A stretch of 64,000 nt of DNA from Halalkalicoccus paucihalophilus. Lineage in GTDB: Archaea > Halobacteriota > Halobacteria > Halobacteriales > Halalkalicoccaceae. The stretch spans positions 1 to 64,000 of the forward strand of contig NZ_LTAZ01000003.1 of NCBI RefSeq assembly GCF_001593955.1. Direction: 5' to 3'. Both the position numbers and the translations under genes were made by a program. The notes beneath the pieces are model-generated. The model was given only the letters and a program-made list of their open reading frames with translations. It had not been told where the DNA came from and did no database searches. Positions 1,418 through 41,046 of the stretch are shown piece after piece. Every line of letters starts with the position of its first letter. Position 1 is the stretch's first letter.

Positions 1418-2989
1418 TCAGTGATCGCTCTCGTGGGGATTCACCTGGGTGCCGTAGTTCTCGGCGTGCTCGGTGTACTCGATGAACCGGGGTGCATCGG
1501 GGTCGAAGGGGCGCTCGAGGGACTCGAAGGCCTTCCTCTTGTCCCAGCCCTGTAGTTTGCCGACCGCGCTCCTGTCCTCCAGGTCGTGGTAGTCGAGGTC
1601 CGGTGCGGTCAGTTCCCAGGCGTCCATCCCGCGCTCGGTGCGGACGATCACACTGGAGTACTCGTCGCTCGATCCCACGGAACCGACGGTGAGGTCCGCA
1701 CAGAAACCCGTGAAATCGGCACACTCGTTACAGCCCTTGAGGGTGGCGTCGTGGAACTCCGTGACGTCCTCGCGCAGGACCTCCTCGCCCTCGTGGTCGT
1801 AGACGATCATGTCGCCGTGAAGCACGTCCATCTTCCCGATCCCCTCGGGGGAAATCCCGCGGCGCTCCTCTAGTTGCTCGCCGATGAGCTTGTGGTAGTT
1901 GAAGTTCTTCGTACACATCAGTGCGATCGTATAATCGATCGCGCGGACGCCCGCGTTCTGGCTCCGATAGTCCCACTCGAAGTCCTGGAGCGCGCGGATC
2001 CCCTCGACCTCGCAGGGCGTTCCCACGAGCGCGAGGCTCGCCTCCTCGAGGGGGACGTCGAGCTTTCCGGCCCACCGGTCGAGGTCGAGGTTGCCGAGCG
2101 CCATCGTCTGGTTGTAGAAACTCCCCGCGTTCGCGACCAGCTCCTCGTGGGTGGTCGCGAGGAAGCTTTCGGCCTTCCACGGTTCGTCCTCCGACTCGGT
2201 GGCGATCAGCGCGCCGTCGATCTCGCCGGCTTCGAGCAGGTGGCTGAGCACGCTCGTGACGACGCCGCCGTCCTGTGCATTGCGCTGCCAGGACTCGCCG
2301 ACCTTCGCGGAGAACTCGGTGATGGGGTCGCCCGCGCCCTTGACGTTGTCCTCGCCGCCCGTAACCACCCACTGGCGCTCGTATCGGAGGCCACCGCGAG
2401 GACAGAAGTCCCAGCACAGCGAACAGCCGGTACACATCTTCACCAATTCCGGCAGGTCGTCCTCGCCGATCCCGATCGAGTCGGAGGGACACGCGGCAAC
2501 ACAGGTCCCACACTGGATACAGCGTCCGTCGTCGATGACGGCGGTATCGAGCTCCATGAACCACGTCTTCTCGTCGGGTGTCTCGATGTCGTTCATCTCC
2601 GAACGAATCGAATAGGACGGGGTGTCGAGGTCGACACCCTCCGGCGCATTCACGCGCTCTGTCGGATCGCCCTCTAGAGTCTGGCTCGTTCCCTCGGCCG
2701 GCGTCGTGAACTGCAGGTCGCCGAGGCTTCCATCGGGGGCGACGTTGACCGCGCCGCCGCTGCCGTCGGCGGCCGCGTTCGAACCGCCGCCACAGCCGCC
2801 GTCCCAGCAGCCACACCCGTCGGTGGCGTGATCCGTGGTCGTTTCGCCCCCGTTCCCGTCGGCCCGCCGGTACCGGATCGGCTTCGCGTCCGGATCCGCG
2901 TTGGCGGGATCGCGCGCCCCACTCGTCGGCGGGACCCCCGTTCCCGCTCTATCGACATCGGGAACACGGGGGAGCGGCCGATCAGTCAT
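1418..2989 (-). CDS. FrhB-type coenzyme F420 dehydrogenase subunit with two 4Fe-4S motifs
   Basis: A 523-residue homologue of the F420 hydrogenase/dehydrogenase beta-subunit family (FrhB, FpoF, N-half of Fsr), which oxidises reduced F420 with FAD and passes electrons through Fe-S clusters. Two ferredoxin motifs are visible: CIQCGTCVAACP (Cys157, 160, 163, 167) and CTGCSLCWDFCP (Cys186, 189, 192, 196). The C-terminal FrhB domain follows, with LGTPCEVEGIRAL and GCNECADFTGFC. The first 140 residues are a low-complexity acidic extension containing a small Cys/Gly cluster, CGCWDGGCGGG (Cys59, 61, 66). Its ATG overlaps the end of the upstream sulfite reductase gene by 8 bases, so the two are co-transcribed and probably act as one enzyme. 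F420 as donor is inferred from family. Confidence 0.88.
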   Translation of the reverse strand: MTDRPLPRVPDVDRAGTGVPPTSGARDPANADPDAKPIRYRRADGNGGETTTDHATDGCGCWDGGCGGGSNAAADGSGGAVNVAPDGSLGDLQFTTPAEGTSQTLEGDPTERVNAPEGVDLDTPSYSIRSEMNDIETPDEKTWFMELDTAVIDDGRCIQCGTCVAACPSDSIGIGEDDLPELVKMCTGCSLCWDFCPRGGLRYERQWVVTGGEDNVKGAGDPITEFSAKVGESWQRNAQDGGVVTSVLSHLLEAGEIDGALIATESEDEPWKAESFLATTHEELVANAGSFYNQTMALGNLDLDRWAGKLDVPLEEASLALVGTPCEVEGIRALQDFEWDYRSQNAGVRAIDYTIALMCTKNFNYHKLIGEQLEERRGISPEGIGKMDVLHGDMIVYDHEGEEVLREDVTEFHDATLKGCNECADFTGFCADLTVGSVGSSDEYSSVIVRTERGMDAWELTAPDLDYHDLEDRSAVGKLQGWDKRKAFESLERPFDPDAPRFIEYTEHAENYGTQVNPHESDH

Positions 2990-4688
2990 CGGCGGCGATC
3001 CCCTTCGAGACGGGCGCGTCGGCCCCCCGCATCACCGTCCGCAGGCGGGCGTTATCGACGCGACGACACCACTCGTAGAAGCGTTCGTCCTCTTGGCGCT
3101 CCTCGGCGTACGCCGAAAACAGCTGTTCGAGCGCCGGGATGACCGCGTCGGCGGGAACGGCGGTCTCGACCCAGTCGAGAAACGCATTGTCGGTCCCGAG
3201 GCTGCCGCCGAGACCGAAATCCATCCCCTCGACGATGTCGTCGGCATCGCCGTCGCCATCGGTGTCCAGTTGGACCGTCTCGCCGCGGAAGCCGATGTCG
3301 GCGATCTGGGGCTGGGCACACGAGGCCGAACAGCCGCTCATGTGCATGCGCACCATCTCGAGGTCCTCGGGGGTCTCGATCCGCTCGTCTAGTTCGCGCG
3401 CCCACCGCCTGATGCGGTTCTTCGTCTCGATGATCCCGTAGTTGCAGAACTCGCTGCCGGTGCAGCCGACCGCCCCCCGCGAGAACGGGCCGGGATCGGG
3501 CTGGTAGTCGGCGGCGAAGGGCTCGGCGAGGAGGTCCTCGACGCGCTCTTCTGGAACGTGAGTGATCAGGAAGTTCTGATCCGTTGCGAGCCGGATCGAG
3601 GCCTCGTCGGTGCCGTACTCGCGGGCGGCGCGGGCGGCTTCGGCGAACTCCTCGCCGCCCATCCGCCCGGCGATCACGTTGAACCCGACGTAGTTCAACC
3701 CCTCTTCGCGCTGGTCGTGGACGCCGACGTGATCGCCCCGGTAGCCCTCGGTGAGGCCCTCGCCGCGCGTCGGGAGGTCGACCGAACACCGGTCGCGGAC
3801 GGCCTCCTCGAAGGCCGCGGGACCCATCTGCTGGACGAGATAGCGCATCCGGCAGACGCCGCGGTTGTGCCGGTCGCCCAACTCCTTGAACGTCTGGGCG
3901 ATCGCCCGGCAGAACTCGACGGCGTCCTCCGGGCGGACGAAGACGTCGAGTTCGGAGGCCATCCGCGGGCCGTCCGAGAGGCCGCCGCCGACGCGGGCGT
4001 GAAATCCGTAGTGGGGTTCGCCCTCGATCCCCTTGCGGGCGGGCACCAGTCCGATGTCGTTGATCTGCGACTGGGCGCAGTCATGCTTGCAGCCCGTGAT
4101 CGTCATCTTGAATTTTCTGGGCAAGTTCGCGTACTCGCGGTTACCAGTGAAAAAGTCTGAGACCGCCTCGATCACCGGTTGGGCGTCGAAACACTCGTGA
4201 TCGTCGAGACCCGCAGCTGGACAGCCCAGCACGTTTCGCGCGCCGTCGCCACAGCCCTGGATCGTCGTCAGGCCGACCGCCTCGTACCGATCCCAGATCT
4301 CGGGGACGTCCTCGATCTCGATCCAGTGGATCTGAACGTCCTGCCGGGTCGTGATATCGAGGTAGGCGTCACCCCAGAGTTCGTTCTGCTCGCTGCCGCC
4401 GTAGGCCTCGGGGGCGGTGGCGAAGTCGCGTGCGACCTCGCCGATCGTTTCGGCCTGTTCAGGCGTGAGATACCCCCCGGGAACCTTCGTGCGCATCATC
4501 AAGTAGCCCCGCTGGCGGCCGTGGGTGTACATCCCGGTCCACTTCATGCGCTCCCAGACGCCCTCGCCGCCACGCTCCTCGATCTCGTCGAACGAGAGCC
4601 CTTCTTCGGCGTACTCGTAGACGTCCTCGATGGCGTCCAGCGGGTGTTTCTCCTGTTTCCAGCGTTCTACTGCGTTCACGGCGGCCAC
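2982..4688 (-). CDS. Siroheme/4Fe-4S sulfite reductase-type protein (NirA/SirA family)
   Basis: A 568-residue assimilatory siroheme reductase (six-electron reduction of sulfite or nitrite). Duplicated ferredoxin-like half-domains are followed by the cluster ligands CTGSEFC (Cys409, 415) and CSASC (Cys453, 457). Putative anion-binding residues are Arg115 (TTRQ), Arg151 (ARNVLG) and the pair Lys192/Lys194 in RKFK. In characterised enzymes Lys-x-Lys here goes with sulfite reductase and Lys-x-Asn with nitrite reductase, so sulfite is the more likely substrate. A second Cys pair, GCKHDC (200, 204), follows. The start is a GTG at 4688 (another GTG lies at 4679). It is the first gene of a pair with the FrhB-like gene, which suggests F420H2 rather than ferredoxin as donor. 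Confidence 0.9.
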   Translation of the reverse strand: MAAVNAVERWKQEKHPLDAIEDVYEYAEEGLSFDEIEERGGEGVWERMKWTGMYTHGRQRGYLMMRTKVPGGYLTPEQAETIGEVARDFATAPEAYGGSEQNELWGDAYLDITTRQDVQIHWIEIEDVPEIWDRYEAVGLTTIQGCGDGARNVLGCPAAGLDDHECFDAQPVIEAVSDFFTGNREYANLPRKFKMTITGCKHDCAQSQINDIGLVPARKGIEGEPHYGFHARVGGGLSDGPRMASELDVFVRPEDAVEFCRAIAQTFKELGDRHNRGVCRMRYLVQQMGPAAFEEAVRDRCSVDLPTRGEGLTEGYRGDHVGVHDQREEGLNYVGFNVIAGRMGGEEFAEAARAAREYGTDEASIRLATDQNFLITHVPEERVEDLLAEPFAADYQPDPGPFSRGAVGCTGSEFCNYGIIETKNRIRRWARELDERIETPEDLEMVRMHMSGCSASCAQPQIADIGFRGETVQLDTDGDGDADDIVEGMDFGLGGSLGTDNAFLDWVETAVPADAVIPALEQLFSAYAEERQEDERFYEWCRRVDNARLRTVMRGADAPVSKGIAADD

Positions 4689-4867: not shown

Positions 4868-6790
4868 TCAGCGCTCACAGAGCGTGACATCCCCGTTGTC
4901 GTAGCCGATCGAACGGGTACCACACATCTCCTCGATGGAGGTCTGGCGGACGTGGTTCCGACCGTCGGCGGTGTCGAACTGAGGGGCACCCTCGCGCTGG
5001 TAGTCGCGGTAGACGATCGTCTCGTGGTCGGGTGGTTCGCCGTCGACGGTGGCCGAGGTGAAACGCTCTTCGCCCCCGTAGCGGTTCAGAACGCTGGTGT
5101 AGGGGCTATCGCTGTAGATGGGGTTCTCGGCGCTACTCTCGGTCGTCTCGACGAGCGTCTCCATCGCCGTCACCTCCGCCTGCGTGTAGCCATAGCGGAT
5201 GTTCTGCTCGGGGAAGGCGGGAGCGTCCTGTGTCGCGTCGCTATTCAGTACCATGCCGCCGGAGAAGACGAGCGCGAAGACGAGAACGACCGCCGCGAGC
5301 AGTTGGGGCGAGCAGTCCCGACGCAGCCGGTCGAACCCGACGGCGGTGAGGATCGCCATCACCGCATAGAGGAACGCGAACCACCGTCCGGGCAGGAAGT
5401 TGCGCAGACCAAAGAGCGGCGGAACGACCGTAAAGACCACCATGATCAGCGCGGCGACGATCAGCGTGAGTCCTGACTGGCTCGTGCGCTCTCGCCCGAG
5501 GAGATAGAGGCTGCCGACGACGGTCCCGAACAAGAAGAGGAGGAACCCGGTCTGGTCGATCAACGGGATGACGGTCCCCCCGAGGAACGATCCGGGCTCG
5601 CCGCCGCCCGCACCCGCGGCCGCGGCACCGCCGCGGTCGAACAGTCCGCTGCCCTCGATCGATCCCCATAGCACCACGAGGACCGCCTCGGTGAACGTCC
5701 GATCGCCCCACGGGGTCATGCTCCAGACCAGCATGAGCAACCCGAGTGCGAACGCCGAATACCCGTGGACGCTGTGGATGCGGATCGAGTAGCCGTCCTC
5801 GGAGAGGAGCCGTTGTCGGAGTTGGCCGGCGCTCAAGACGATCTGTGCGAGCGACCCGGCACCGAACAGCACGACCATGATGAACGCCGAGACCTGGTGG
5901 GTGAGCGCCATCGCGAACATGAACCCGATCAGCAGGGCGACCTCGGCGGGGCGGGGCCCGTGTTGTTGGATCCGGACGAACAGCAACAGGATCGCGAGGA
6001 AGACCACCAGTCCCAGACTCGTCGGAATGAGGTGGATCGACCAGACCACGACGAAGTCGCTGATCGAGTAGGCCGCCGTGGCGAAGACCGCCCAGCGCGG
6101 GTCGACGAACCGGACGGCCGTCAGGTAGACCAGCAGGCTCACGACGGCCATCACGACGCCGATCGAGCCGAAGAGCGCGAGACGTGGCGTGACACCGGTG
6201 AGAAGCGTCGTCGCGGCGACTACGAGGTGGTAGAACGGCGCGGCGCTGTACTTCGTCCGCCCCATTCCCGCGATCGAACCGGTGTCGAGGATCCCCCGGA
6301 CGTACTGTGGCATATGTACCCAGACGTCGATCCCGACGTAGCCCGCCGATCCTAGGAGTCCGGCGAAACGGACCACGAACCCCAGCGCGACCACCTGTGC
6401 CAGCAACAGGCCGACCGAGAAATCACGGTCGGGTGTGAACGCGATCTGGACGAACACCAGCACCGAGAGGGCGATCGTGATCGCATAGAACGCGGGCCCG
6501 CGTCCGCCGGTCAGGAGCGACAGGGCTATCAGTCCGGTCGTACCGAGGAAAACGACGCCCGGGAGGGCGTAGACGACCGATCGGGAGACGGTCGCGACCC
6601 GATCGACCGACTGGGACCGCGTCGCGACCAGATAGAGCAGACAGGCGACCGCGAGCACCGGCGGGACTGTCCGCACCAGAACGTGGGAGAGGTAGAGGTT
6701 GAGCGGGATCAACAGCGCCGCGAGGAGGAGACCCCCAACTGCGCCGAGGGTCCCGAACCCGACCCGGTAGCCCCGGACGGAGAGATGCAT
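4868..6790 (-). CDS. Large polytopic membrane protein, possible GT-C-type glycosyltransferase
   Basis: A 640-residue protein with roughly a dozen hydrophobic segments over residues 10-500, then a soluble C-terminal part of about 120 residues ending in a Cys pair (EEMCGT and TLCER). Around residue 153 an extracellular-loop motif DVWVHMPQ with an acidic residue is followed by KYSAAPFYH; this layout recalls GT-C membrane glycosyltransferases, which use an Asp/Glu in the first outer loop. A flippase and a secreted beta-helix protein lie in the same 6-kb block, which fits a surface-polysaccharide or S-layer glycosylation role. The exact family is not recognised; function is inference. Confidence 0.6.
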   Translation of the reverse strand: MHLSVRGYRVGFGTLGAVGGLLLAALLIPLNLYLSHVLVRTVPPVLAVACLLYLVATRSQSVDRVATVSRSVVYALPGVVFLGTTGLIALSLLTGGRGPAFYAITIALSVLVFVQIAFTPDRDFSVGLLLAQVVALGFVVRFAGLLGSAGYVGIDVWVHMPQYVRGILDTGSIAGMGRTKYSAAPFYHLVVAATTLLTGVTPRLALFGSIGVVMAVVSLLVYLTAVRFVDPRWAVFATAAYSISDFVVVWSIHLIPTSLGLVVFLAILLLFVRIQQHGPRPAEVALLIGFMFAMALTHQVSAFIMVVLFGAGSLAQIVLSAGQLRQRLLSEDGYSIRIHSVHGYSAFALGLLMLVWSMTPWGDRTFTEAVLVVLWGSIEGSGLFDRGGAAAAGAGGGEPGSFLGGTVIPLIDQTGFLLFLFGTVVGSLYLLGRERTSQSGLTLIVAALIMVVFTVVPPLFGLRNFLPGRWFAFLYAVMAILTAVGFDRLRRDCSPQLLAAVVLVFALVFSGGMVLNSDATQDAPAFPEQNIRYGYTQAEVTAMETLVETTESSAENPIYSDSPYTSVLNRYGGEERFTSATVDGEPPDHETIVYRDYQREGAPQFDTADGRNHVRQTSIEEMCGTRSIGYDNGDVTLCER

Positions 6791-6877
6791 CTACGATACC
6801 CCCCTTCCGATCGGTCCCGAACTGCGCCGCTGATACCGTCCCCTCCCTCGCATCGCCCGCTCTTTCGGGCCCACCCG

Positions 6878-7020
6878 CTTTATTATGGCCGGGGTAACAT
6901 CGCGGCACGGTATATCGGCACACGATCACAGACCGAACTCAATTCGAAATCCGAAATCCGTCGAGAGAGGGTATGATAGGCGGTATATGGGGGAATTAAT
7001 CTCAACAAGAGTGAAAGAAT
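6878..7020. promoter_or_regulatory. AT-rich upstream gap of the membrane gene
   Basis: Between the membrane gene start (6790) and the beta-helix stop (7029) lie about 240 bases. They hold TTTATTATGG near 6880, which reads as a TATA-like box on the minus strand, and a short direct repeat GAAATCC GAAATCC near 6943. No open frame is convincing. Confidence 0.3.
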
Positions 7021-7028
7021 AGCGTTAC

Positions 7029-8381
7029 TCAGGGACCGAGATCGATTCGGTCGCCGTCGATCGTGGTCTCGACCGGTGCGCTGGTCTCGAAGTCGGTGAT
7101 CTCGCCCGTGAACGCGTAGGAGTCGGGTTCCCGGGTGGTACGGCCCGTTACCTTCGAGCCGTCGACCGAGTCGTAGTCGTTGATCGTACCCCCGTAGGCG
7201 GTGGATTTCTCGACCTCGCCCGAGACGGAAAGCTCGTAGTTCGCGGTCGAGCCACGGCCCGCGACGGTGAGTACGTCCCGGTCGGCGTTGGTATCGCCCG
7301 CGTCGTCCGTCTCGCGGGGATGGCCGACGTCCGCAGTCGGTTCGTCGGGTCCGAAGTGGTTGCCCGAGAGCGTGACCTCATCCCACCCGTTGCCGTCCGC
7401 GTCGTTGTGGTACTGGACAATGGGCGAGCCGTCGACGTACCGATCCGCGCCGGGATCGGTCGGATTGAAAAACCAGTTGTCGGCCACGCGAGCGCCCGAA
7501 CCGGGCGTGCCGCGGATGGCGATCGCCGCGGTCGCGTTCCCGCTCCGGTTTTCGACGAGTTCGAACGTGTTGTGGTGGACGTCGATCCGGTCGCCGCCAG
7601 GGGCGTGCATCTCGAAGCCGAAGATCAGGCCGTTCGGCCCCTGCAGGTTGTAGCGGGCCTCGTAGCTACAGCCGGCTCGACCGCCACCGGCGATACTGTG
7701 GCGGTTGGCGTCGAAGTAGTTGTGCTCGATCAGCGGGTCGCCCCGATAGACGACGACGCCGTAACCCAACCTTCCATCATGTTGTCGTGGATCGAGCAGT
7801 GGTGGACGTGGGCCGCGCTGTCCAGCGGATCCGAGCCGTGGCGACCGATCCCGATCGCGGCGTGGGTCCAGCCGTAGAGTTCGCAGTTGTCGATCTCGCA
7901 GTCGGCGTACGCCCGCAGCGCCAGCGAGTCGTTGTCCCAGGCGTTCCCCGCGGGATCGTAGTAACCGACGTGGTGGCCCCGAAACCGCAGGCCCGTGATC
8001 CGCACGCCCGCCTCGTATATCTGGAAGAGTCGCGAGGCGCGTTCGTCGGCGGTGATCAGCGCGCCCGATAACCCGTTCCGGCCGCGCCCGCTGGCGAGGG
8101 TCACATCGCCCGGAATCGTGATCCGATGGACGCTCAGGTCGATGACCGCGTCGTCGCCACGTAGATCGTCTTCGATCCCCCGTCGAGCGCCGAGAGCAGT
8201 TCCTCGCGCGTCGAGACGACGACGTCGGCCTCCTCGGGCGAGACCGTCCGGTCATAGCCCTCGCCGCCGCCTACTTCCCCGCTCGGCGCTGGGTCCTCAC
8301 GTGCCATGACTGGGGTGGACCCACACCGACCGCGCTCGCGGCGGCCGTGAGTCCGAGCGTGAGATAGGCGCGACGCCCCAT
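7029..8381 (-). pseudogene. Secreted right-handed beta-helix protein, broken by three frameshifts
   Basis: Starting at ATG 8381 the reading begins MGRRAYLTLGLTAAASAVG, a Tat/Sec-like signal. It then continues in a second frame (MAREDPAPSGEVG through STREELLSALDGG to about 8158), a third frame (VIDLSVHRITIPGDVTLASG through HHCSIHDNMMEG to about 7768) and a fourth stretch (GYGVVVYRGDPLIEHNYFD to the stop at 7029). Read together they give about 450 residues of a parallel beta-helix (CEIDNCELYGW, HVHHCSIHDN, IDVHHNTFELVENRSG), the fold of NosD and pectate-lyase-type proteins. Each junction is repaired by adding one G:C in a short run (near 8317, 8158 and 7768). Either a decaying gene or sequence errors; the substrate is unknown. 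Confidence 0.75.
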
Positions 8382-9057: not shown

Positions 9058-10580
9058 AGGAGGCGCTTTGCGATCGTTTTGGCCGGGCCGAGATCCACAC
9101 CTAGCCGTTCTTCGAGGTCGAGGACGAGGACGATCTCCTCGCGTTCGATCCCGCCGAACCGGAGCGTGACGAGGGCATGGATCCCGAGAAAGAGCGCGAA
9201 CAGCACGAAGAATACCGGGAGCGTGACGGTCACGAGCGAGGTGACGAGGAAGTAGAGCCCGCCGATCGCCACGAGCGCGGCGGTCGCGGGTTTCAACAGC
9301 GACGCGCTGAACGGGTGGATCCCGGTGCGGGTGTAGAGTTGGAGCGAGTAGGCGACGTTGAGCAGGAAATACGAGATGACGGTGGCGACCGCAGCGCCGA
9401 GATACGAATAGCGAGGAATGAGGACGACGTTGAGCGCGATGTTCAGTCCCGCGGCCCCGATGTTGTCGAGCATGATGAGGCGGGTATGACCCATCGCGGT
9501 CAGCGTCTTGTAGTTCGGGCCGACGACCGCGTGGACGAAGAAGCCGACCGCGAGGACCGAGAGGGCGAGCGCACCCTCGGTGTACTGGGGGCCGAACGTC
9601 AGACGGATCAGCAGGTCGGGAAACAGCGCGATGACGATGAAGATCGGAAGGGAGGCCATGAAGATCCACTTCGTGACCAGTTGGTAGATGTGGCCCATCT
9701 CCTCGGTGTCCCCCTCGGCGTGCAGTTCCGAGAGGATCGGGACGAACAGAAAGCCGAAGGAGGCGAGCACGACCGTCAGCATCGTCGCCAGCGGGTAGAG
9801 CACGTTGTAGACGCCGACGTCGGCCGTCGAGACGAAATACCCCAGCAGGAAGGTGTCGATGTCGGCGAGGATCTTTACCATGATCGCCGAGATGATCAAC
9901 GGGGCCGAAAACGCGAGCAACTCGCGGTGCATCGAGGTCGCCTCGGTTCGCGTAAACAGCGGCGTGTACCGGTACAGGTAGTAGAGCCCGAGTCCCGCCG
10001 CGGCGGCGTGCCCGACGACGTAGGCCCACGCGACCCCGGCGGCGCTGTAGCCCAGCCAGAGGATCACTACTGCGAGGAGGAGGCGGGTGACGTGGGCGGT
10101 GACGTTCTCGACGAGCACCTTCGGGAACGTGCGTTTCGTCCCTTGAATCCCGCCGATGGCGAGCTTCTCGATCGACGCGAACGGCATCGCGAGCCCGAAC
10201 ACCCGTAACACCGGCACGACGTTCGGATCGCCGAACGCGCGGGTGGCGATCGGCTCGGCGAAGACGATCAACACGCCACCCGCGAGGATCGAGAGGGGCA
10301 ACACGAGCTGGAACGCCGAGACGAGGACTCCCCGTCGCCGTTCGGGATCGTCGTAGCGCGGAAGGAACCGTCCGACGCCCGTATGCATGCCTAAGAGAAC
10401 GACCGTCGAGACGGTCGCGAGCGCCGCCGTGCCGAGTGCGATCGCACCGTAGCCCTCGGGGCCGAGTAGTCGGCCGATGACGAGCGCGGAGAGAAACGAG
10501 ATCCCGAGCCCGAACATCTCGCCGACGAAGACGATGCTCCCGCCGGTGAACAGTTTCTGAAAGGGTTCGGCGTCGGCCAT
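9054..10580 (-). CDS. MOP-superfamily polysaccharide flippase (Wzx/RfbX-like)
   Basis: A 508-residue membrane protein with about 12-14 hydrophobic helices, beginning with FTGGSIVFVGEMFGLGISFL and including the family-typical GRLLGPEGYGAIALG loop. The family moves lipid-linked oligosaccharides across the membrane (Wzx, AglR-like in haloarchaea). A short hydrophilic tail follows the last helix. It is separated from ftsY by 63 bases and may share a promoter with other surface genes. Role in glycan export is inferred from family and from the neighbouring GT-C-like and beta-helix genes. Confidence 0.85.
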   Translation of the reverse strand: MADAEPFQKLFTGGSIVFVGEMFGLGISFLSALVIGRLLGPEGYGAIALGTAALATVSTVVLLGMHTGVGRFLPRYDDPERRRGVLVSAFQLVLPLSILAGGVLIVFAEPIATRAFGDPNVVPVLRVFGLAMPFASIEKLAIGGIQGTKRTFPKVLVENVTAHVTRLLLAVVILWLGYSAAGVAWAYVVGHAAAAGLGLYYLYRYTPLFTRTEATSMHRELLAFSAPLIISAIMVKILADIDTFLLGYFVSTADVGVYNVLYPLATMLTVVLASFGFLFVPILSELHAEGDTEEMGHIYQLVTKWIFMASLPIFIVIALFPDLLIRLTFGPQYTEGALALSVLAVGFFVHAVVGPNYKTLTAMGHTRLIMLDNIGAAGLNIALNVVLIPRYSYLGAAVATVISYFLLNVAYSLQLYTRTGIHPFSASLLKPATAALVAIGGLYFLVTSLVTVTLPVFFVLFALFLGIHALVTLRFGGIEREEIVLVLDLEERLGVDLGPAKTIAKRLL

Positions 10581-10643
10581 CGAGGAGTTACACCGACCCG
10601 TCGAGAAGGTACATTCCGAATGGCGAACGGTGAACGGCCGCCA

Positions 10644-11828
10644 TCACTCGCCCAACAGCTGGTCGACCAGCCAGTCGGGGTCGAACGGTTCGAGGTCGTC
10701 GTAGCCCTGACCGGTGCCCAAAAAGAGGATGGGTTTGCCGGTGACGTACGCGATCGAGATCGCCGCCCCGCCGTTGGCGTCGGCGTCGGCCTTCGTGAGG
10801 ATCGCGCCGTCGATCTCGGCGGCGTCGTTGAACTTCTTCGCGCGCTGGACGGCGTCCTGTCCGGCGACGGCCTCGTCGGTGAACAGGGTCATGTCGGGCC
10901 CGACGACACGGTTTATCTTCTCGAGTTGGTCCATCAGCCCCTCGTTGGTGTGAAGGCGTCCCGCGGTGTCGCCGAGCACCACGTCGACCCCGTGGGCCTC
11001 GGCGTACTCGACGGCGTCGTAGATCACCGCCGCCGGATCACCGCCCTGTTCGTGGGAGATGAGCTTCGTGCCCAGTCGGTCGGCGTGCTCGCGGACCTGT
11101 TCGTTCGCGCCCGCACGGTAGGTATCGCCGTTTGCGATCACCGTGGAGTAGCCCCGCTCCTCGAGATAGCGCGAGAGTTTCGCGATCGAGGTGGTCTTGC
11201 CGACGCCGTTGACGCCGGTGAAGATGACGGTGACGGGCTTTTCGGCCGCGGCGATCCGCTCGTCGAAGTCGAACTGCCCGACGCTGATGACCTCCAAGAG
11301 AGCCTCGCGAAGCGCCTCGTCGACCCGTTCCTCGACCGTCTGGGTCATTCCACGGGTCGCGTTCTCCAACTCGTCTCGGAGGTTCGCGACGATCTCTTGG
11401 GCGACGGTGAACTCGACGTCGCTTTCGAGCAGCGCGAACTCCAGATCGTCCAAGGGTCCTTCGATGACCTCCGGGTCGATGACGATCTGGCCGGTCGCGA
11501 GCGACTTCGCCCGGTGCATGAACCCGCTGCCCGAGGAGCGCTCGTCGGCTGTATCCGCGACCTCGGTACCGGCCTCGTCGTCCTCGACGGCGTTTTCGGG
11601 CTCGACGGGTTCGCCCGAACCGGCCGGTTCGGGTTCGGCATCCGGCGTCGCTCGGTCGGCCGGCTCCGCCGACGGATCCGATTCCACCGTCGGTTCGGCC
11701 GCCTCGGCCTCGGCCGTCTCCGCTTCGGGTTCCGTGGCATCCTCCGGTTCGGTCGATTCGGTCGCTTCGGCCTCCTCCTCGACGTCCTCACGGAAGCGAC
11801 CGAGCTTCTCTTTCAGCCCGTCGAACAT
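10644..11828 (-). CDS. ftsY: Signal recognition particle receptor FtsY
   Basis: A 394-residue SRP receptor GTPase. An acidic Glu/Ala/Thr-rich A region (about residues 12-110) leads into the N domain and a G domain with GVNGVGKTTSIAKL, NGDTYRAGANEQ, DTAGRLHTN and TKADADANGG. The protein ends FDPDWLVDQLLGE, as usual. Its ATG is one base after the prefoldin alpha stop, so it is the distal gene of the rpl39e-rpl31e-eif6-pfdA-ftsY operon. It works with Srp54 at the cytoplasmic membrane. Confidence 0.97.
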   Translation of the reverse strand: MFDGLKEKLGRFREDVEEEAEATESTEPEDATEPEAETAEAEAAEPTVESDPSAEPADRATPDAEPEPAGSGEPVEPENAVEDDEAGTEVADTADERSSGSGFMHRAKSLATGQIVIDPEVIEGPLDDLEFALLESDVEFTVAQEIVANLRDELENATRGMTQTVEERVDEALREALLEVISVGQFDFDERIAAAEKPVTVIFTGVNGVGKTTSIAKLSRYLEERGYSTVIANGDTYRAGANEQVREHADRLGTKLISHEQGGDPAAVIYDAVEYAEAHGVDVVLGDTAGRLHTNEGLMDQLEKINRVVGPDMTLFTDEAVAGQDAVQRAKKFNDAAEIDGAILTKADADANGGAAISIAYVTGKPILFLGTGQGYDDLEPFDPDWLVDQLLGE

Positions 11829-35070: not shown

Positions 35071-36831
35071 TCAGTCGTCGGCCGACAGCGGCGTTCCGTC
35101 CGCGGTCGTCGGTGCGGGACTTTCCCCCTCCGCGAAGGGGTACCACGAGCCCTTCGCGTCGTACATCCACGGATCTTCATAACTACTCTCCTCGGGGTCG
35201 GCGAGTTCGACGAGCGTCTCGGTTCCGGTTTCCTCGACCCACGCGCGGAACGACTGGCCCGGAGAGCGATGGGCCGCGTAGCCCTCAACGAGCTTCTTGA
35301 TCACTGCGGGCGCCTCATCGGCGGGCACGCGCTGGTGGACCCACTCGATAAAGGAGGGGGTTTCACCTATGCCGCCGCCGACGCCGATGTCGAGCGCCTC
35401 GACCATCTCGCCGTTCTTCCGGGCGCGCATCCCCTGTAGGCCGATGTCGGCGGTCAGCGCCTGCCCGCAGTCGGCCGTACAGCCCGAGTAGTGGATGTGG
35501 ATGTCCTCGACGTCGTCGGGCAGCTCGCAGTTGTCGCGCAGCCAGCGGATGGTTCGAGCGAGGCGGGCCTTCGTCTCTGTCAGCGCCAGCGGGCAGAACT
35601 CCGTCCCCGTGCACGCGATCGAACCCCGCTGGAACGGGTGGGGTTCGGGGGTGTGCGTCTCCAATACGGGTTCGGAAAGGAGCGGATCGAGGTCTGCCTC
35701 GGGGACGTCCATGATCAGGGGGTTCTGCCGGCGGCTCAGGCGCACCTCCCCGCTCCCGTACTCGCTCGCGCAGTTCGCGATCGCGATCGCCTCCTTGGCG
35801 CGAAGCCTCCCCACCGGGACGCTCAGGCCCACGTAGTACTTCCCGTCGTGCTGTTCGTGGACACCGACGTGGTCGCCGCCACGACAGGTCCCGGCGTTGT
35901 ACGTGTACTCCTCGCGGAGGTCCGCGCCCGCCCCGCGGAGCTCGAAGTCGACGTACTCCTCCTGGAGGAGCTCGCGGATCTCCTCGACGCCCCAGTCGTC
36001 GACGAAGAAGCGCGACCGGGACTTCTGGCGGTTCTCGCGTTCGCCGTGGTCTTGATACAGTTCGACGAAGCCCCGGACGACGTCGTAGGCTTCCGCTTCG
36101 GTGACGAAGACGTCGAGCGGACGGGCCTCTCGGGGCTGTCTCCCTCCGAGACCGCCACCGATCCGGACGTTATACCCCTTCGTCAGCTCGCCCTCGGTCG
36201 GTTTCTCGGCGGGTTCGAGCCCGATGTCGTTGATCGAGTCCTGTGCACAGCCCTCCCGACAGCCCGTCACCGAGACGTTGAACTTCCGGGGGAGGTCCGC
36301 GAGCGAGTCGTCCTCGCGCAACTCAGAGTTCAGCCGTTCGAGCAGGTCCGGCGAGTCGATAAATTCTCGCCTATCGCGCCCGGCGACGGGACAACCGGCC
36401 ATGTTGCGCATCGAATCCCCGCCGGAGGAGCGACTGGAGACCCCCACGGATTCGAGCTTCTCCCAGATCTCGGGAATGTCCTCGAGCTTGAGCCAGTGCA
36501 GTTGGATCGACTGGCGCGTCGTCAGGTCGAGAAAGCCGTTGCCGAACTCCGGGTTCTCTGCGGGTCCGGTCGCGTAGTCGCGCGCGACCTCGCCGATGGC
36601 CCGGAGTTGGCCCGGCCGGAGGACGCCCCCGGCGTTCTGCAGACGCATCATGAAGTAGCTCTCCTGGCCGTCGCGCTGGTGGAAGACCCCCCAGTGTTTG
36701 AACAGCGAGAACCACTTCTTTCGCTCCCCCTCGGGGATCGACTCCCAACCGCCCTCGGCGAACTCGAGGAGCCTCTCGCGGAGCTCCTCGCCGTAGCACT
36801 CGTCTTTCCACTGCTCGATCTCAGGCGCCAC
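35071..36831 (-). CDS. nirA: Assimilatory ferredoxin-nitrite reductase NirA
   Basis: A 586-residue siroheme/4Fe-4S reductase, nitrite to ammonium in the cytoplasm. Cluster ligands CTGTEFC and CTADC. The active-site pair is Lys183/Asn185 in LPRKFNVSV, the nitrite-type signature, unlike the RKFK of the paralogue at 2982-4688. Start GTG 36831 (MAPEIEQWKDECYG) with GAGGTGG ten bases ahead. Diverges from narK and shares the locus with nasA, which together give nitrate uptake and two-step reduction to ammonium. Confidence 0.94.
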   Translation of the reverse strand: MAPEIEQWKDECYGEELRERLLEFAEGGWESIPEGERKKWFSLFKHWGVFHQRDGQESYFMMRLQNAGGVLRPGQLRAIGEVARDYATGPAENPEFGNGFLDLTTRQSIQLHWLKLEDIPEIWEKLESVGVSSRSSGGDSMRNMAGCPVAGRDRREFIDSPDLLERLNSELREDDSLADLPRKFNVSVTGCREGCAQDSINDIGLEPAEKPTEGELTKGYNVRIGGGLGGRQPREARPLDVFVTEAEAYDVVRGFVELYQDHGERENRQKSRSRFFVDDWGVEEIRELLQEEYVDFELRGAGADLREEYTYNAGTCRGGDHVGVHEQHDGKYYVGLSVPVGRLRAKEAIAIANCASEYGSGEVRLSRRQNPLIMDVPEADLDPLLSEPVLETHTPEPHPFQRGSIACTGTEFCPLALTETKARLARTIRWLRDNCELPDDVEDIHIHYSGCTADCGQALTADIGLQGMRARKNGEMVEALDIGVGGGIGETPSFIEWVHQRVPADEAPAVIKKLVEGYAAHRSPGQSFRAWVEETGTETLVELADPEESSYEDPWMYDAKGSWYPFAEGESPAPTTADGTPLSADD

Positions 36832-38848: not shown

Positions 38849-38980
38849 ATGGCGACGAAATCGCAAGTGTCGGCGGCAACCCTGTACGGATGTGGAACCT
38901 TCACGTTAGAACAGGCGGCCCGGGCGGCGGGAGTGTCGAGCGAGCGAATGCGGGCGTGCGCTCGCAGCCTCGGGTTCTAG
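38849..38980 (+). CDS. 43-residue helix-turn-helix-like protein
   Basis: MATKSQVSAATLYGCGTFTL continues as EQAARAAGVSSERMRACARS, which reads as a helix-turn-helix (the GVS turn is typical). Similar mini-HTH proteins occur across haloarchaea. Its TAG overlaps the nasA stop in CTAG. Its place between narK and nasA suggests a regulator of nitrate genes or simply of itself. Too short for confident family assignment. Confidence 0.65.
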   Translation: MATKSQVSAATLYGCGTFTLEQAARAAGVSSERMRACARSLGF

Positions 38981-41046
38981 TCGTCGCCGACGGCCACCGG
39001 CCGATCGACCGGTTCGGACGGTGCGAGTAGATCGACCGCACACTGTTTGTAGTTCGGTTCGTCCGAGCGAGGATCGGTTTCGGGAAGTGTAAGTTCGTTG
39101 ACCTCCGGATGGTGGATCGGCAGCCAGACCATCCCCTCCGGGATCCGGTCGTCGGCCTCGACGCGTGCGGTGATCGATCCTCGACGCGAGCGCACGAGGA
39201 GGCGGCCGTCGCGAACACGCCCCTCGGCGTCGCTCAGGGTGTCGGGATGGAGGCGGGCGGTCGGCGGTTCGAGCGACCCGTTCCGGGTCCGCACCCCGGT
39301 GTTGTACTCGTCGGCCTTCCGGGCCGTGGTCAGCGTCAGCGGGTACTCCTCGTCCGTGGGTTCGGGAACTTTTCCACGAGTGCCCGTCGAGAAACGAGCC
39401 CTCCCCGATGGCGTCTCGAAGGCCCAACCGTCGTCGGTGCGATAGCGGTAGCCGCCCGCGCTCGTGGCGTCGGGTGCGGGCCAGCGGATCGCGAGTTCCG
39501 CGTCCAACCGGTCGTAGCTGATCCCCGAGAGGTCGGCGGGCGTCCCACGGGTCAACTCACGGAGTTCGTCGAACACGTTCTCGGAATCGAGCGGCGGTCG
39601 ATTGAACGCCTGTGGAGCGATTTCCCGCCCGATCGCGCCGATGATGTCGAGGTCGGATCGGACCCCGCTGGGCAGGTCGGTGGCGGCGCGCACTCTCGAT
39701 ACCGTTCGCTCCATGTTCGTCGTCGTCCCCGCCGACTCGCCCCACGTCGCCGCCGGCAGGATCACGTCCGCGAGTCCGGTGGTCTCGGTCTCGAAGGCGT
39801 CCTGAGCGATCAGAAACGTATCGGAGAAGGCCTCGCGGGCGCTCGTGGCGTCGGGCAGGCCGGCGACCGGGTTGGTCGCAACCGTATAACACACCTCCAC
39901 GTCCCCGTCGGCCATCGCCTCCCCGATCCCGACGGGCCCCGGTCCGGCGTCCGCCGGCAGTCGTTTTTCGGGGATTCCCCACGTTTCTGCGACCCGCTCG
40001 CGGCCCTCGGGATCGGTAAACTCCCGATGGCCGGGCCAGGTCCCCTTCGAGGAGCAGACCCGCGTGCCCATCGAGTTCGCCTGTCCGGTCAACGAGAACG
40101 GGCCCGCGCCCTCGCCCATGTTACCCGAGGCGAGACACAGGTCGATCAGCGCACCCGCCATCTGGGTCCCCTGCGTGCTCTGGTTGACACCCATCCCCCA
40201 GTAAACGAGCGTACGCTCCTCGAAGGCCGCCGCGAGCGTCTCGCAGTCCTCGGGGGGGACCCCGGCGCTCGCGGCCGCCTCGCGAGGGTCCGGGAGGTCG
40301 GTCGTAAGTCCGTCGAACCCCTCGGTGTACTCGTCGATGAACGTTCGGTCGATCCGCCCGGTCTCGACCAAGTGGGCCAGAACGGCCCGCGCGAGCGCGA
40401 GGTCGGTACCTGGTTCCGGGGCGACGTGGGCGTCAGCGTGATCCGCGCTCTCGCTTTCGACCGGATCGACGACGATCAGTCGCCCCTCGGAATTCCGGAG
40501 CCACCGAAAGAGCACGGGATGGGCCACCGCGGGGTTGGCCCCCCAGAGCAGATGCACGTCGGCGTGGGGGACGTCGTCGTAGGTCGGCGGCGGGGCGTCG
40601 CTGCCGAAGGCGTCGTAGTAGGCGGTGACGGCGCTTGCCATACACAGCGTGGTGTTGGCGTCGTAATGGCGGGTGCCGATCGCGCCGCGGGCGAGTTTTC
40701 CCAAGAGATAGGCCGCCTCGTTGGTCTGCTGGCCGCTTCCCAGCACCGCGATCCGGTCGGGATCGCGCGCCCGGACCTCGGCGAGCCGGTCCGTGACGAC
40801 TCCGAGGGCCGTGTCCCAACTCGTCGACATCAGTTCGCCGTCCTTCCTGATGAGCGGTCGGGTAAGCCACTCGCCGTCGGGTTCTGTGGTCTCGCGCAGT
40901 CCGCGCCCGCAGGCAAGCCCCTGACTCACCGGATAGGCGGGATCGCCGCTGATCCCCGCGAGGCCATAGCCCCTGTCCGCGCCGTGCTGGAGGTGGCCAC
41001 AGCCGACCGCACACCGCATACAGGTCGTCGGAATCGGCTCGCTCAT
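38977..41046 (-). CDS. nasA: Assimilatory nitrate reductase NasA
   Basis: A 689-residue molybdopterin (bis-MGD) oxidoreductase, nitrate to nitrite. N-terminal 4Fe-4S motif CMRCAVGCGHLQH plus a later Cys in GLACGRG; Mo-binding blocks LGSGQQTNEAAYLLGKLARG, NPAVAHPVLFRW and GMGVNQSTQGTQMAGALIDL; C-terminal MGD domain PLTLTTARKADEYNTG. No signal peptide, so cytoplasmic, which together with NirA means assimilation rather than respiration. No molybdopterin-transfer gene is adjacent. Confidence 0.94.
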   Translation of the reverse strand: MSEPIPTTCMRCAVGCGHLQHGADRGYGLAGISGDPAYPVSQGLACGRGLRETTEPDGEWLTRPLIRKDGELMSTSWDTALGVVTDRLAEVRARDPDRIAVLGSGQQTNEAAYLLGKLARGAIGTRHYDANTTLCMASAVTAYYDAFGSDAPPPTYDDVPHADVHLLWGANPAVAHPVLFRWLRNSEGRLIVVDPVESESADHADAHVAPEPGTDLALARAVLAHLVETGRIDRTFIDEYTEGFDGLTTDLPDPREAAASAGVPPEDCETLAAAFEERTLVYWGMGVNQSTQGTQMAGALIDLCLASGNMGEGAGPFSLTGQANSMGTRVCSSKGTWPGHREFTDPEGRERVAETWGIPEKRLPADAGPGPVGIGEAMADGDVEVCYTVATNPVAGLPDATSAREAFSDTFLIAQDAFETETTGLADVILPAATWGESAGTTTNMERTVSRVRAATDLPSGVRSDLDIIGAIGREIAPQAFNRPPLDSENVFDELRELTRGTPADLSGISYDRLDAELAIRWPAPDATSAGGYRYRTDDGWAFETPSGRARFSTGTRGKVPEPTDEEYPLTLTTARKADEYNTGVRTRNGSLEPPTARLHPDTLSDAEGRVRDGRLLVRSRRGSITARVEADDRIPEGMVWLPIHHPEVNELTLPETDPRSDEPNYKQCAVDLLAPSEPVDRPVAVGDD

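What the first reader, a model, noticed from the sequence alone, without database searches (positions are those of the whole stretch)
1418..4688. Two-gene F420-linked sulfite reductase, a split version of methanogen Fsr
An FrhB-type F420 oxidoreductase gene (two 4Fe-4S motifs) overlaps by 8 bases a siroheme reductase gene with the sulfite-type active-site motif RKFK. In methanogens Fsr is one polypeptide with an F420-dehydrogenase half and a siroheme reductase half. Here the same two parts are adjacent genes, so F420H2 may drive assimilatory sulfite reduction in this halophile. The gene order and motifs are seen; the F420-sulfite link is inferred.
Basis: partly seen in the sequence, partly recalled or inferred. 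Interest (0 to 1): 0.75.

Follow-up and report, generated by a model that had tools for sequence, protein, structure and literature searches.

The report
F420-linked sulfite reductase gene pair
Two overlapping genes of a salt-loving archaeon encode a siroheme reductase with sulfite-type active-site residues and a partner protein predicted to feed it electrons from the cofactor F420, likely a way to make sulfide; the pairing was already predicted in print in 2012, and the activity would still have to be tested.

Summary
The idea is not new: Susanti & Mukhopadhyay (2012, PMC3448663) predicted this haloarchaeal pair as aFsr; their tree legend lists Halalkalicoccus jeotgali, and the window's nearest named relatives are Halalkalicoccus. 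'Split Fsr' is half true: the F420 half resembles Fsr's, but the reductase is the double-repeat plant/NirA type. The link is strong: in 292 haloarchaeal genomes the reductase orthologue was found in 82 and lay just upstream of FrhB in 82 of 82. Added here: a sister branch (25 of 292, linked 25 of 25) with rhodanese domains fused to the reductase, and a Hydrothermarchaeota MAG with the pair followed, at a one-base overlap, by cysH (PAPS reductase). Both tie the family to sulfite. K-x-K occurs in 33 of 33 aligned haloarchaeal reductases of both branches; the nitrate-locus paralogue in this window has K-x-N. ATP sulfurylase (PF01747) was not found here, so sulfate as the source is unsupported, though not excluded. 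F420H2-dependent activity remains untested.

The parts
1418..2989 (-). aFsr-beta: FrhB-type F420 oxidoreductase subunit, 523 aa, ATG start; its stop is 46 bases before the start (1371, -) of an ORF that clusters with the window's SRP54-type GTPase
2402..2521 (-). two CX2CX2CX3CP ferredoxin motifs, residues C157-C196
   Evidence: all 8 Cys in 22 of 22 type-1, 11 of 11 type-2, 2 of 2 type-3 rows
1721..2014 (-). span of the FrhB-domain [4Fe-4S] ligands C326, C359, C420, C423
   Evidence: in 55 of 55 aligned rows, outgroups included
2573..2989 (-). N-terminal extension, residues 1-139, predicted disordered, with a Cys-rich patch; the stretch at about residues 121-147 looks conserved in the type-1 rows
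   Evidence: pLDDT < 50; the model begins at residue 2
2982..4688 (-). aFsr-alpha: double-repeat assimilatory siroheme reductase, 568 aa (or from GTG 4679), first gene of the pair
2982..2989 (-). 8-base overlap of the two genes
4107..4118 (-). RKFK, K192 and K194: sulfite-type active-site pair (K-x-K)
3318..3464 (-). siroheme-linked [4Fe-4S] ligands CX5C...CX3C, C409, C415, C453, C457
35071..36831 (-). comparison paralogue, not part of the pair: siroheme reductase with K-x-N (nitrite type), about 2.1 kb from a molybdopterin oxidoreductase at 38977-41046(-)

Best explanation
The two overlapping genes encode an assimilatory-type siroheme reductase with the sulfite-type K-x-K motif and an FrhB-type flavoprotein-family subunit carrying a ferredoxin domain, and together they are predicted to form a two-subunit F420H2-driven sulfite reductase, the 'aFsr' already predicted for haloarchaea. 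Likely route (inferred from the anatomy): F420H2 reduces FAD in the FrhB domain; electrons pass through the FrhB [4Fe-4S] and the two clusters of the N-terminal ferredoxin domain, which would stand in for the soluble ferredoxin used by plant reductases, to the siroheme-[4Fe-4S] of the partner; three F420H2 would reduce one sulfite to sulfide. Shown here: gene order, overlap, domain content, cluster ligands, active-site residues, 82 of 82 linkage, and kinship with pairs tied to rhodanese or cysH. Inferred: complex formation, F420H2 as donor, sulfite as physiological substrate, and that the sulfite comes from thiosulfate or organosulfur rather than by the classical sulfate route.
For: Linkage: reductase orthologue (E <= 1e-180) in 82 of 292 genomes, 35 of 77 genera, FrhB just downstream on the same strand in 82 of 82. 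Donor: the closest solved relatives of the FrhB protein are F420-linked: CODH component and formylmethanofuran dehydrogenase complex of Ca. Ethanoperedens, Fsr, Frh; plant HCAR, ferredoxin-using by recall, is more distant (best E 9.3e-17 against 5.0e-28). Substrate: K-x-K in 22 of 22 type-1 and 11 of 11 type-2 reductases aligned, against K-x-N in the window's nitrate-locus paralogue; R66 and R151 also kept. Sister branch with rhodanese fused to the reductase, FrhB linked 25 of 25; cysH overlapping the pair in a Hydrothermarchaeota MAG. The trees of the two subunits both separate type 1 from type 2, as expected if they evolved together.
Against: No activity data. An Fsr relative (FsrII, ANME-2c) reduces nitrite but not sulfite with F420H2, which its authors lay to its electron-delivery module, not its substrate site (PMC9295563 abstract and passages), so K-x-K is not proof. 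The genome has a second K-x-K reductase (L038) and only one FrhB gene, so the pair is not needed a priori. A type-2 pair lies beside nosZ in Natronococcus occultus, which could be read as a nitrogen-oxide link. One type-3 FrhB gene lies near an FAD flavoprotein gene instead. The genomes counted are related, so 82 of 82 is not 82 independent events; a few of the matches contain a stop or are split (G050, G089, G118, G136, G249, G255).
Confidence: 0.7

Rival explanations
1. F420H2-dependent nitrite (or hydroxylamine) reductase: same electron path, but nitrite is the physiological acceptor, as in ANME FsrII.
For: FsrII precedent. NCBIfam's best match for the reductase is 'ferredoxin--nitrite reductase', below its cut-off, and the plasmid record names the H. 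mediterranei copy so. One type-2 pair lies beside nosZ.
Against: K-x-K in 33 of 33 aligned, K-x-N in the nitrate-locus paralogue of the same window; rhodanese fusion and cysH operon in relatives; this genome already has a nitrate-locus reductase.
Confidence: 0.12
2. The reductase uses ferredoxin or another donor; the FrhB subunit is an adapter that does not use F420, like plant HCAR, or runs the other way and reduces F420.
For: HCAR, a ferredoxin-using FrhB relative (recalled), shares the fold; the reductase itself is of the ferredoxin-dependent family. No F420-bound structure or F420-residue test was done here.
Against: Nearest relatives by sequence and fold are F420 enzymes; F420 has been found in halophilic archaea (passages in PMC8305020 and PMC8498797); the pair carries its own ferredoxin domain.
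Confidence: 0.13
3. Plain neighbours: adjacent genes without a joint enzyme.
For: No protein-protein data.
Against: 82 of 82 and 25 of 25 linkage in fixed order, also on plasmids and outside haloarchaea; both subunit trees separate the two types.
Confidence: 0.03

Closest known systems
aFsr, putative F420H2-dependent assimilatory sulfite reductase of haloarchaea (Susanti & Mukhopadhyay 2012, PMC3448663)
   Same: aSir-type alpha plus Fsr-N-type beta in haloarchaea; the tree legend lists Halalkalicoccus jeotgali, and the window gene is 85% identical to a protein named from Halalkalicoccus jeotgali
   Different: Nothing essential. This report adds counts, the rhodanese-fused sister type, and the cysH-linked relative
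Fsr group I of Methanocaldococcus/Methanothermococcus (PDB 7NP8, 7NPA)
   Same: FrhB domain with N-terminal ferredoxin domain; four basic active-site residues; same overall reaction if the prediction holds
   Different: One polypeptide; reductase half is a single repeat (PMC10229431 passages); motif B lacks the second Cys that is present here (PMC9295563 section 11)
FsrII / FNiR of ANME-2c (PMC9295563)
   Same: F420H2 dehydrogenase module joined to a siroheme reductase
   Different: One polypeptide; reduces nitrite, not sulfite, with F420H2
Ferredoxin-dependent NirA/NiR/SiR (spinach and tobacco NiR, M. tuberculosis NirA)
   Same: Double-repeat fold of aFsr-alpha
   Different: They use soluble ferredoxin (recalled); here an F420-type subunit with its own ferredoxin domain is encoded next door
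Rhodanese plus anaerobic sulfite reductase (Asr) thiosulfate reduction in Halanaerobium (PMC5497025, abstract and passages)
   Same: Works like the proposed role of the type-2 relatives: rhodanese frees sulfite, a siroheme enzyme reduces it
   Different: Separate proteins, Asr-type reductase; concerns the sister branch, not the window pair

Membership tests
aFsr (haloarchaeal, predicted 2012) | aSir-type siroheme reductase subunit | tested here: met
aFsr (haloarchaeal, predicted 2012) | adjacent Fsr-N-type subunit (FrhB plus two N-terminal ferredoxin clusters) | tested here: met
aFsr (haloarchaeal, predicted 2012) | F420H2-dependent sulfite reduction | not testable with these tools
   needs enzyme assay; none was seen in the parts of the papers opened
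Fsr group I (methanogen) | both halves on one polypeptide | tested here: not met
   separate overlapping genes
Fsr group I (methanogen) | C-half a single S/NiR repeat homologous to Fsr-C | tested here: not met
   double repeat, best match NiR/NirA; Fsr E 1.5e-07, TM 0.31-0.33
Fsr group I (methanogen) | F420H2-oxidase half with N-terminal ferredoxin domain | tested here: met
   E 9.9e-41 to 7np8, fold match
Siroheme nitrite reductase (K-x-N; rule recalled from plant NiR) | Asn at the second position of the loop | tested here: not met
   RKFK here, RKFN in the window's 35071-36831 paralogue
Sulfite-type siroheme reductase | two Arg and two Lys around the substrate | tested here: met
   R66, R151, K192 invariant and K194 nearly so in 22 aligned rows; that they correspond to Fsr R355, R423, K460, K462 (PMC10229431 passages) is my reading, not computed
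Sulfate-assimilation pathway member | ATP sulfurylase in the same genome | tested here: not met
   PF01747: 0 hits in the own draft genome, 7 of 292 genomes, none with either pair type; a CysDN route was not excluded

The most novel reading that the evidence does not exclude
The window pair is one branch of an old, modular F420H2:sulfite reductase family. In a sister haloarchaeal branch two rhodanese domains are fused to the reductase, making one F420H2-driven enzyme that splits thiosulfate and reduces the released sulfite to sulfide; in Hydrothermarchaeota the same pair forms an operon with PAPS reductase. This would give F420 a concrete job in haloarchaea and answer where they get sulfide without ATP sulfurylase.
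Probability: 0.45. Interest if true: 0.7.

Novelty: new member of a known kind. Interest (0 to 1): 0.45.

Why it matters
The role of F420 in haloarchaea is called enigmatic or undetermined in passages of two reviews (PMC8305020; PMC8498797), and sulfide formation in haloarchaea is called little known (PMC3402447, passage). A pair linked in 82 of 82 genomes, with a copy on plasmid pHME505 of Haloferax mediterranei ATCC 33500, makes both questions testable in a cultured strain. The rhodanese-fused sister type suggests a direct thiosulfate-to-sulfide enzyme.

Tried and rejected
Rejected: 'split Fsr' by descent. Rejected: nitrite-type active site. Not supported: classical sulfate assimilation as the source of sulfite in this genome, at least by ATP sulfurylase PF01747 (the draft is 94.55% complete). 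The four PF01507 matches lie on three ORFs; two of these, in tandem, match CysD only below its cut-off; the third, the 538-aa frame at C1:111753, was not scanned. Against me here: PMC3402447 (passage) reports a haloarchaeon that grows on sulfate as sole sulfur source and proposes a sulfite oxidoreductase as the way in, so sulfate is not excluded.

Tried, weak: co-occurrence with the other K-x-K reductase (NirA3). Of the 219 genomes listed, I dropped 16 rows with best E between 5.8e-238 and 1e-230 as probable nitrate-type paralogues (judged by score only) before counting; 203 stayed. Pair genomes with NirA3: 45 of 89; genomes without a pair: 158 of 203 (Fisher p 7e-6, not corrected for kinship); 45 of 292 have neither. 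It hints at partial replacement only.

Tried, uninformative: CofD PF01933 in the own genome rings in 10 of 14 control genomes, some of them without F420 by recall, so it is weak evidence for F420. The first motif script found 4 of 30 rows and was replaced by BLAST. Trees carry long-branch warnings; with the extra rows the type-1 FrhB and rhodanese-reductase branches drop to 86 and 89, and the place of the Dehalococcoidia and Hydrothermarchaeota rows is unsure. The homologue search listed only the best 120 of 2206. Unlinked FrhB rows: two type-3 genes (G105:C7, G241:C1), a 205-residue fragment (G192) and the second piece of a split match (G136).

Literature: no enzymology of aFsr was seen in the listings of searches of the held open library or in the parts opened; most subscription papers are not in it. 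The FrhB link of the rhodanese-reductase fusion was not seen in section 9 of PMC11237513, which reports the fusion itself (19 of 529 NirA); PMC4725937 from one search was not opened. The passages shown of two Hydrothermarchaeota papers (PMC6759336, PMC6775978) speak of Dsr, AsrC/Fsr-C and F420 hydrogenase subunits, not of this pair.
Full report
What is there. They share eight bases, ATGACTGA, which hold the start of one and the stop of the other. The reductase is first in transcription order and lies 179 bases after ORF 4868-6790(-). Its orthologues mostly start (M/V)NxVE, so GTG 4679 may be the true start. Downstream, 46 bases after the FrhB stop, an ORF begins at 1371(-) and runs off the contig's edge; it falls in one BLAST cluster with the window's SRP54-domain protein at 10644-11828(-), so the pair sits in a core gene neighbourhood.

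Anatomy of the FrhB protein. It has FrhB_FdhB_N and _C domains and Fer4 domains. In an alignment of 55 relatives, the eight cysteines of two CX2CX2CX3CP motifs (C157-C196) occur in all 22 type-1, 11 type-2 and 2 type-3 haloarchaeal rows, and the four FrhB ligands (C326, C359, C420, C423) in 55 of 55. FsrI and FsrII lack the second cysteine of motif B, while FpoF and FqoF have it (PMC9295563 section 11); the haloarchaeal protein has it. The nearest solved relatives by sequence are 8riu, Fsr, a further Fsr-like entry (9tn7) and Frh subunits; 8riu is an F420-reducing CODH component and 8rja an F420-reducing formylmethanofuran dehydrogenase complex (titles). An AlphaFold2 model (mean pLDDT 72; the first 138 modelled residues below 50) matches the same set, with plant HCAR, which by recall uses ferredoxin, further down (E 9.3e-17 against 5.0e-28). 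No F420- or FAD-contact residues were tested.

Anatomy of the reductase. NIR_SIR and NIR_SIR_ferr each match in two stretches. Best solved matches are tobacco and spinach NiR (best E 7.8e-86) and M. tuberculosis NirA; the Fsr entries come last (E 1.5e-07 and weaker). The model (pLDDT 83) has TM 0.78-0.81 to NiR/NirA and 0.31-0.33 to Fsr. So the reductase is not the Fsr C-half. R66, R151, K192, K194 and the ligands C409, C415, C453, C457 are conserved. R-K-x-K is present in 22 of 22 type-1 and 11 of 11 type-2 reductases aligned. The window's own second siroheme reductase, 35071-36831(-), about 2.1 kb from a molybdopterin oxidoreductase, has K-x-N, the nitrite type (the K/N rule is recalled from plant NiR work). 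This is an internal contrast within one window. A third reductase of the genome (C3:283296-285068, L038) has K-x-K; it has no FrhB neighbour, since the only PF04432 match in the genome is the window's gene.

Prior art. PMC3448663 (abstract, section 11, passages) predicted this arrangement in 2012 as aFsr, with aFsr-alpha of aSir type and aFsr-beta of Fsr-N type, and its tree legend lists Halalkalicoccus jeotgali. The window gene is 85% identical to a protein named from H. jeotgali and 92% to one from a MAG named Halalkalicoccus, so I take the genus to be Halalkalicoccus. I found no activity test in the parts of papers opened; a 2022 figure legend still calls it putative (PMC9295563).

Conservation. 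In 292 genomes of the class, the own one included, FrhB homologues (E <= 1e-20) occur in 89, in 38 of 77 genera. The reductase orthologue (E <= 1e-180) occurs in 82, in 35 of 77 genera. It lies upstream of FrhB on the same strand, at most 367 bases from match to match, in 82 of 82 (coordinates typed). Only the best 3-5 candidates per genome were scored, so counts are lower bounds. Some matches hold a stop, are cut short or are split (G050, G089, G118, G136, G249, G255). H. mediterranei carries the pair on plasmid pHME505 with an 11-base overlap.

A sister type. FrhB proteins of 40-50% identity, mostly about 410-440 aa, lie just downstream of a reductase of about 800 aa with a rhodanese part at its N-terminus; Pfam finds two Rhodanese stretches in the one that was scanned (L068). 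This fusion occurs in 25 of 292 genomes (12 of 77 genera; E <= 1e-220) and is linked to FrhB in 25 of 25; 18 genomes have both types and 89 have either. The rhodanese part of L074 matches rhodaneses/thiosulfate sulfurtransferases best, and the active-site CNTARR loop is present in 11 of 11. The FrhB tree and the reductase tree both separate type 1 from type 2. The fusion itself was reported, without mention of this neighbour, in section 9 of PMC11237513.

Outside haloarchaea. A scan with the type-2 FrhB found 14 loci: 10 haloarchaeal (rhodanese-reductase upstream in 10 of 10), one Ca. Pyrohabitans MAG, one MAG labelled Thermococcus (FrhB 96% identical to the former), one Dehalococcoidia MAG, and one weak Bacteroidales match of 73 residues. 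The three middle ones have reductase sequence just upstream, without a detected rhodanese; at the Dehalococcoidia locus only the reductase tail is on the contig. The Thermococcus-labelled MAG's reductase has K-x-K. In the Pyrohabitans MAG (Ca. Hydrothermarchaeota) the reductase reads in two frames, and FrhB is followed, with a one-base TGATG overlap, by a PAPS reductase above its curated cut-off (265 bits against 154). PAPS reductase makes sulfite (established knowledge). This, with the rhodanese fusion, is the best context evidence that the family handles sulfite.

Where the sulfite comes from. ATP sulfurylase PF01747 was not found in this genome and is present in 7 of 292, none with either pair. 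PMC3402447 (passage) states that the APS/PAPS route is absent from sequenced haloarchaea and that thiosulfate sulfurtransferase plus sulfite reductase has been proposed; it also reports growth of its strain on sulfate and proposes a sulfite oxidoreductase for that. So sulfate is not excluded, but sulfite and thiosulfate are the better first tests for this pair.

How it would work. F420H2 (-360 mV) to sulfite (-116 mV) is downhill (values from PMC9295563). The beta subunit's ferredoxin domain would replace soluble ferredoxin in docking to alpha. The type-1 N-terminal extension may help docking; this is a guess. The main caution is FsrII, which does not pass F420H2 electrons to sulfite although it reduces sulfite with methyl viologen.

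Verdict. Real, well conserved, already predicted. The wider family (rhodanese-fused and cysH-linked relatives) is the part worth following.

Noticed in passing
L067-L078, e.g. L074:3960-6371(+) and 6373-7626(+): Rhodanese plus siroheme reductase fusion directly followed by a type-2 FrhB gene, in 25 of 292 haloarchaeal genomes.
   Followed up: yes
L139:2568-6046 (Ca. Pyrohabitans MAG), L140, L143 (Dehalococcoidia MAG): Reductase-FrhB pair outside haloarchaea; in L139 followed by cysH with a one-base overlap; the L139 reductase is broken into two frames.
   Followed up: partly
L071:6801-9886(-) and L073: A type-3 FrhB (68-70% identical to the window's, without its N-terminal extension) with no siroheme reductase found at either locus (L073 ends just after the gene); in L071 an FAD_binding_2 flavoprotein gene lies upstream. 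The F420 module seems to be re-used with another partner.
   Followed up: partly
window 2573-2989 (-): Cys-rich patch (here CGCWDGGCGGG) in the predicted disordered N-terminal extension, recurring in varied CxC forms in most of the 22 type-1 proteins listed, not in all (not in L064); function unknown.
   Followed up: no
window 35071-36831 (-) and 38977-41046 (-): Nitrite-type (K-x-N) siroheme reductase near a molybdopterin oxidoreductase: probable nitrate assimilation locus in the same window.
   Followed up: partly
L046:8759-9730(+) and 10270-11226(+) (G000:C1): Two tandem PAPS_reduct-domain ORFs, similar to CysD only below its cut-off; a relative lies divergently next to a rhodanese-reductase fusion in L069.
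   Followed up: no
L100:3628-11629: In Natronococcus occultus SP4 plasmid 2 the type-2 pair is followed by nosZ and nosD.
   Followed up: no
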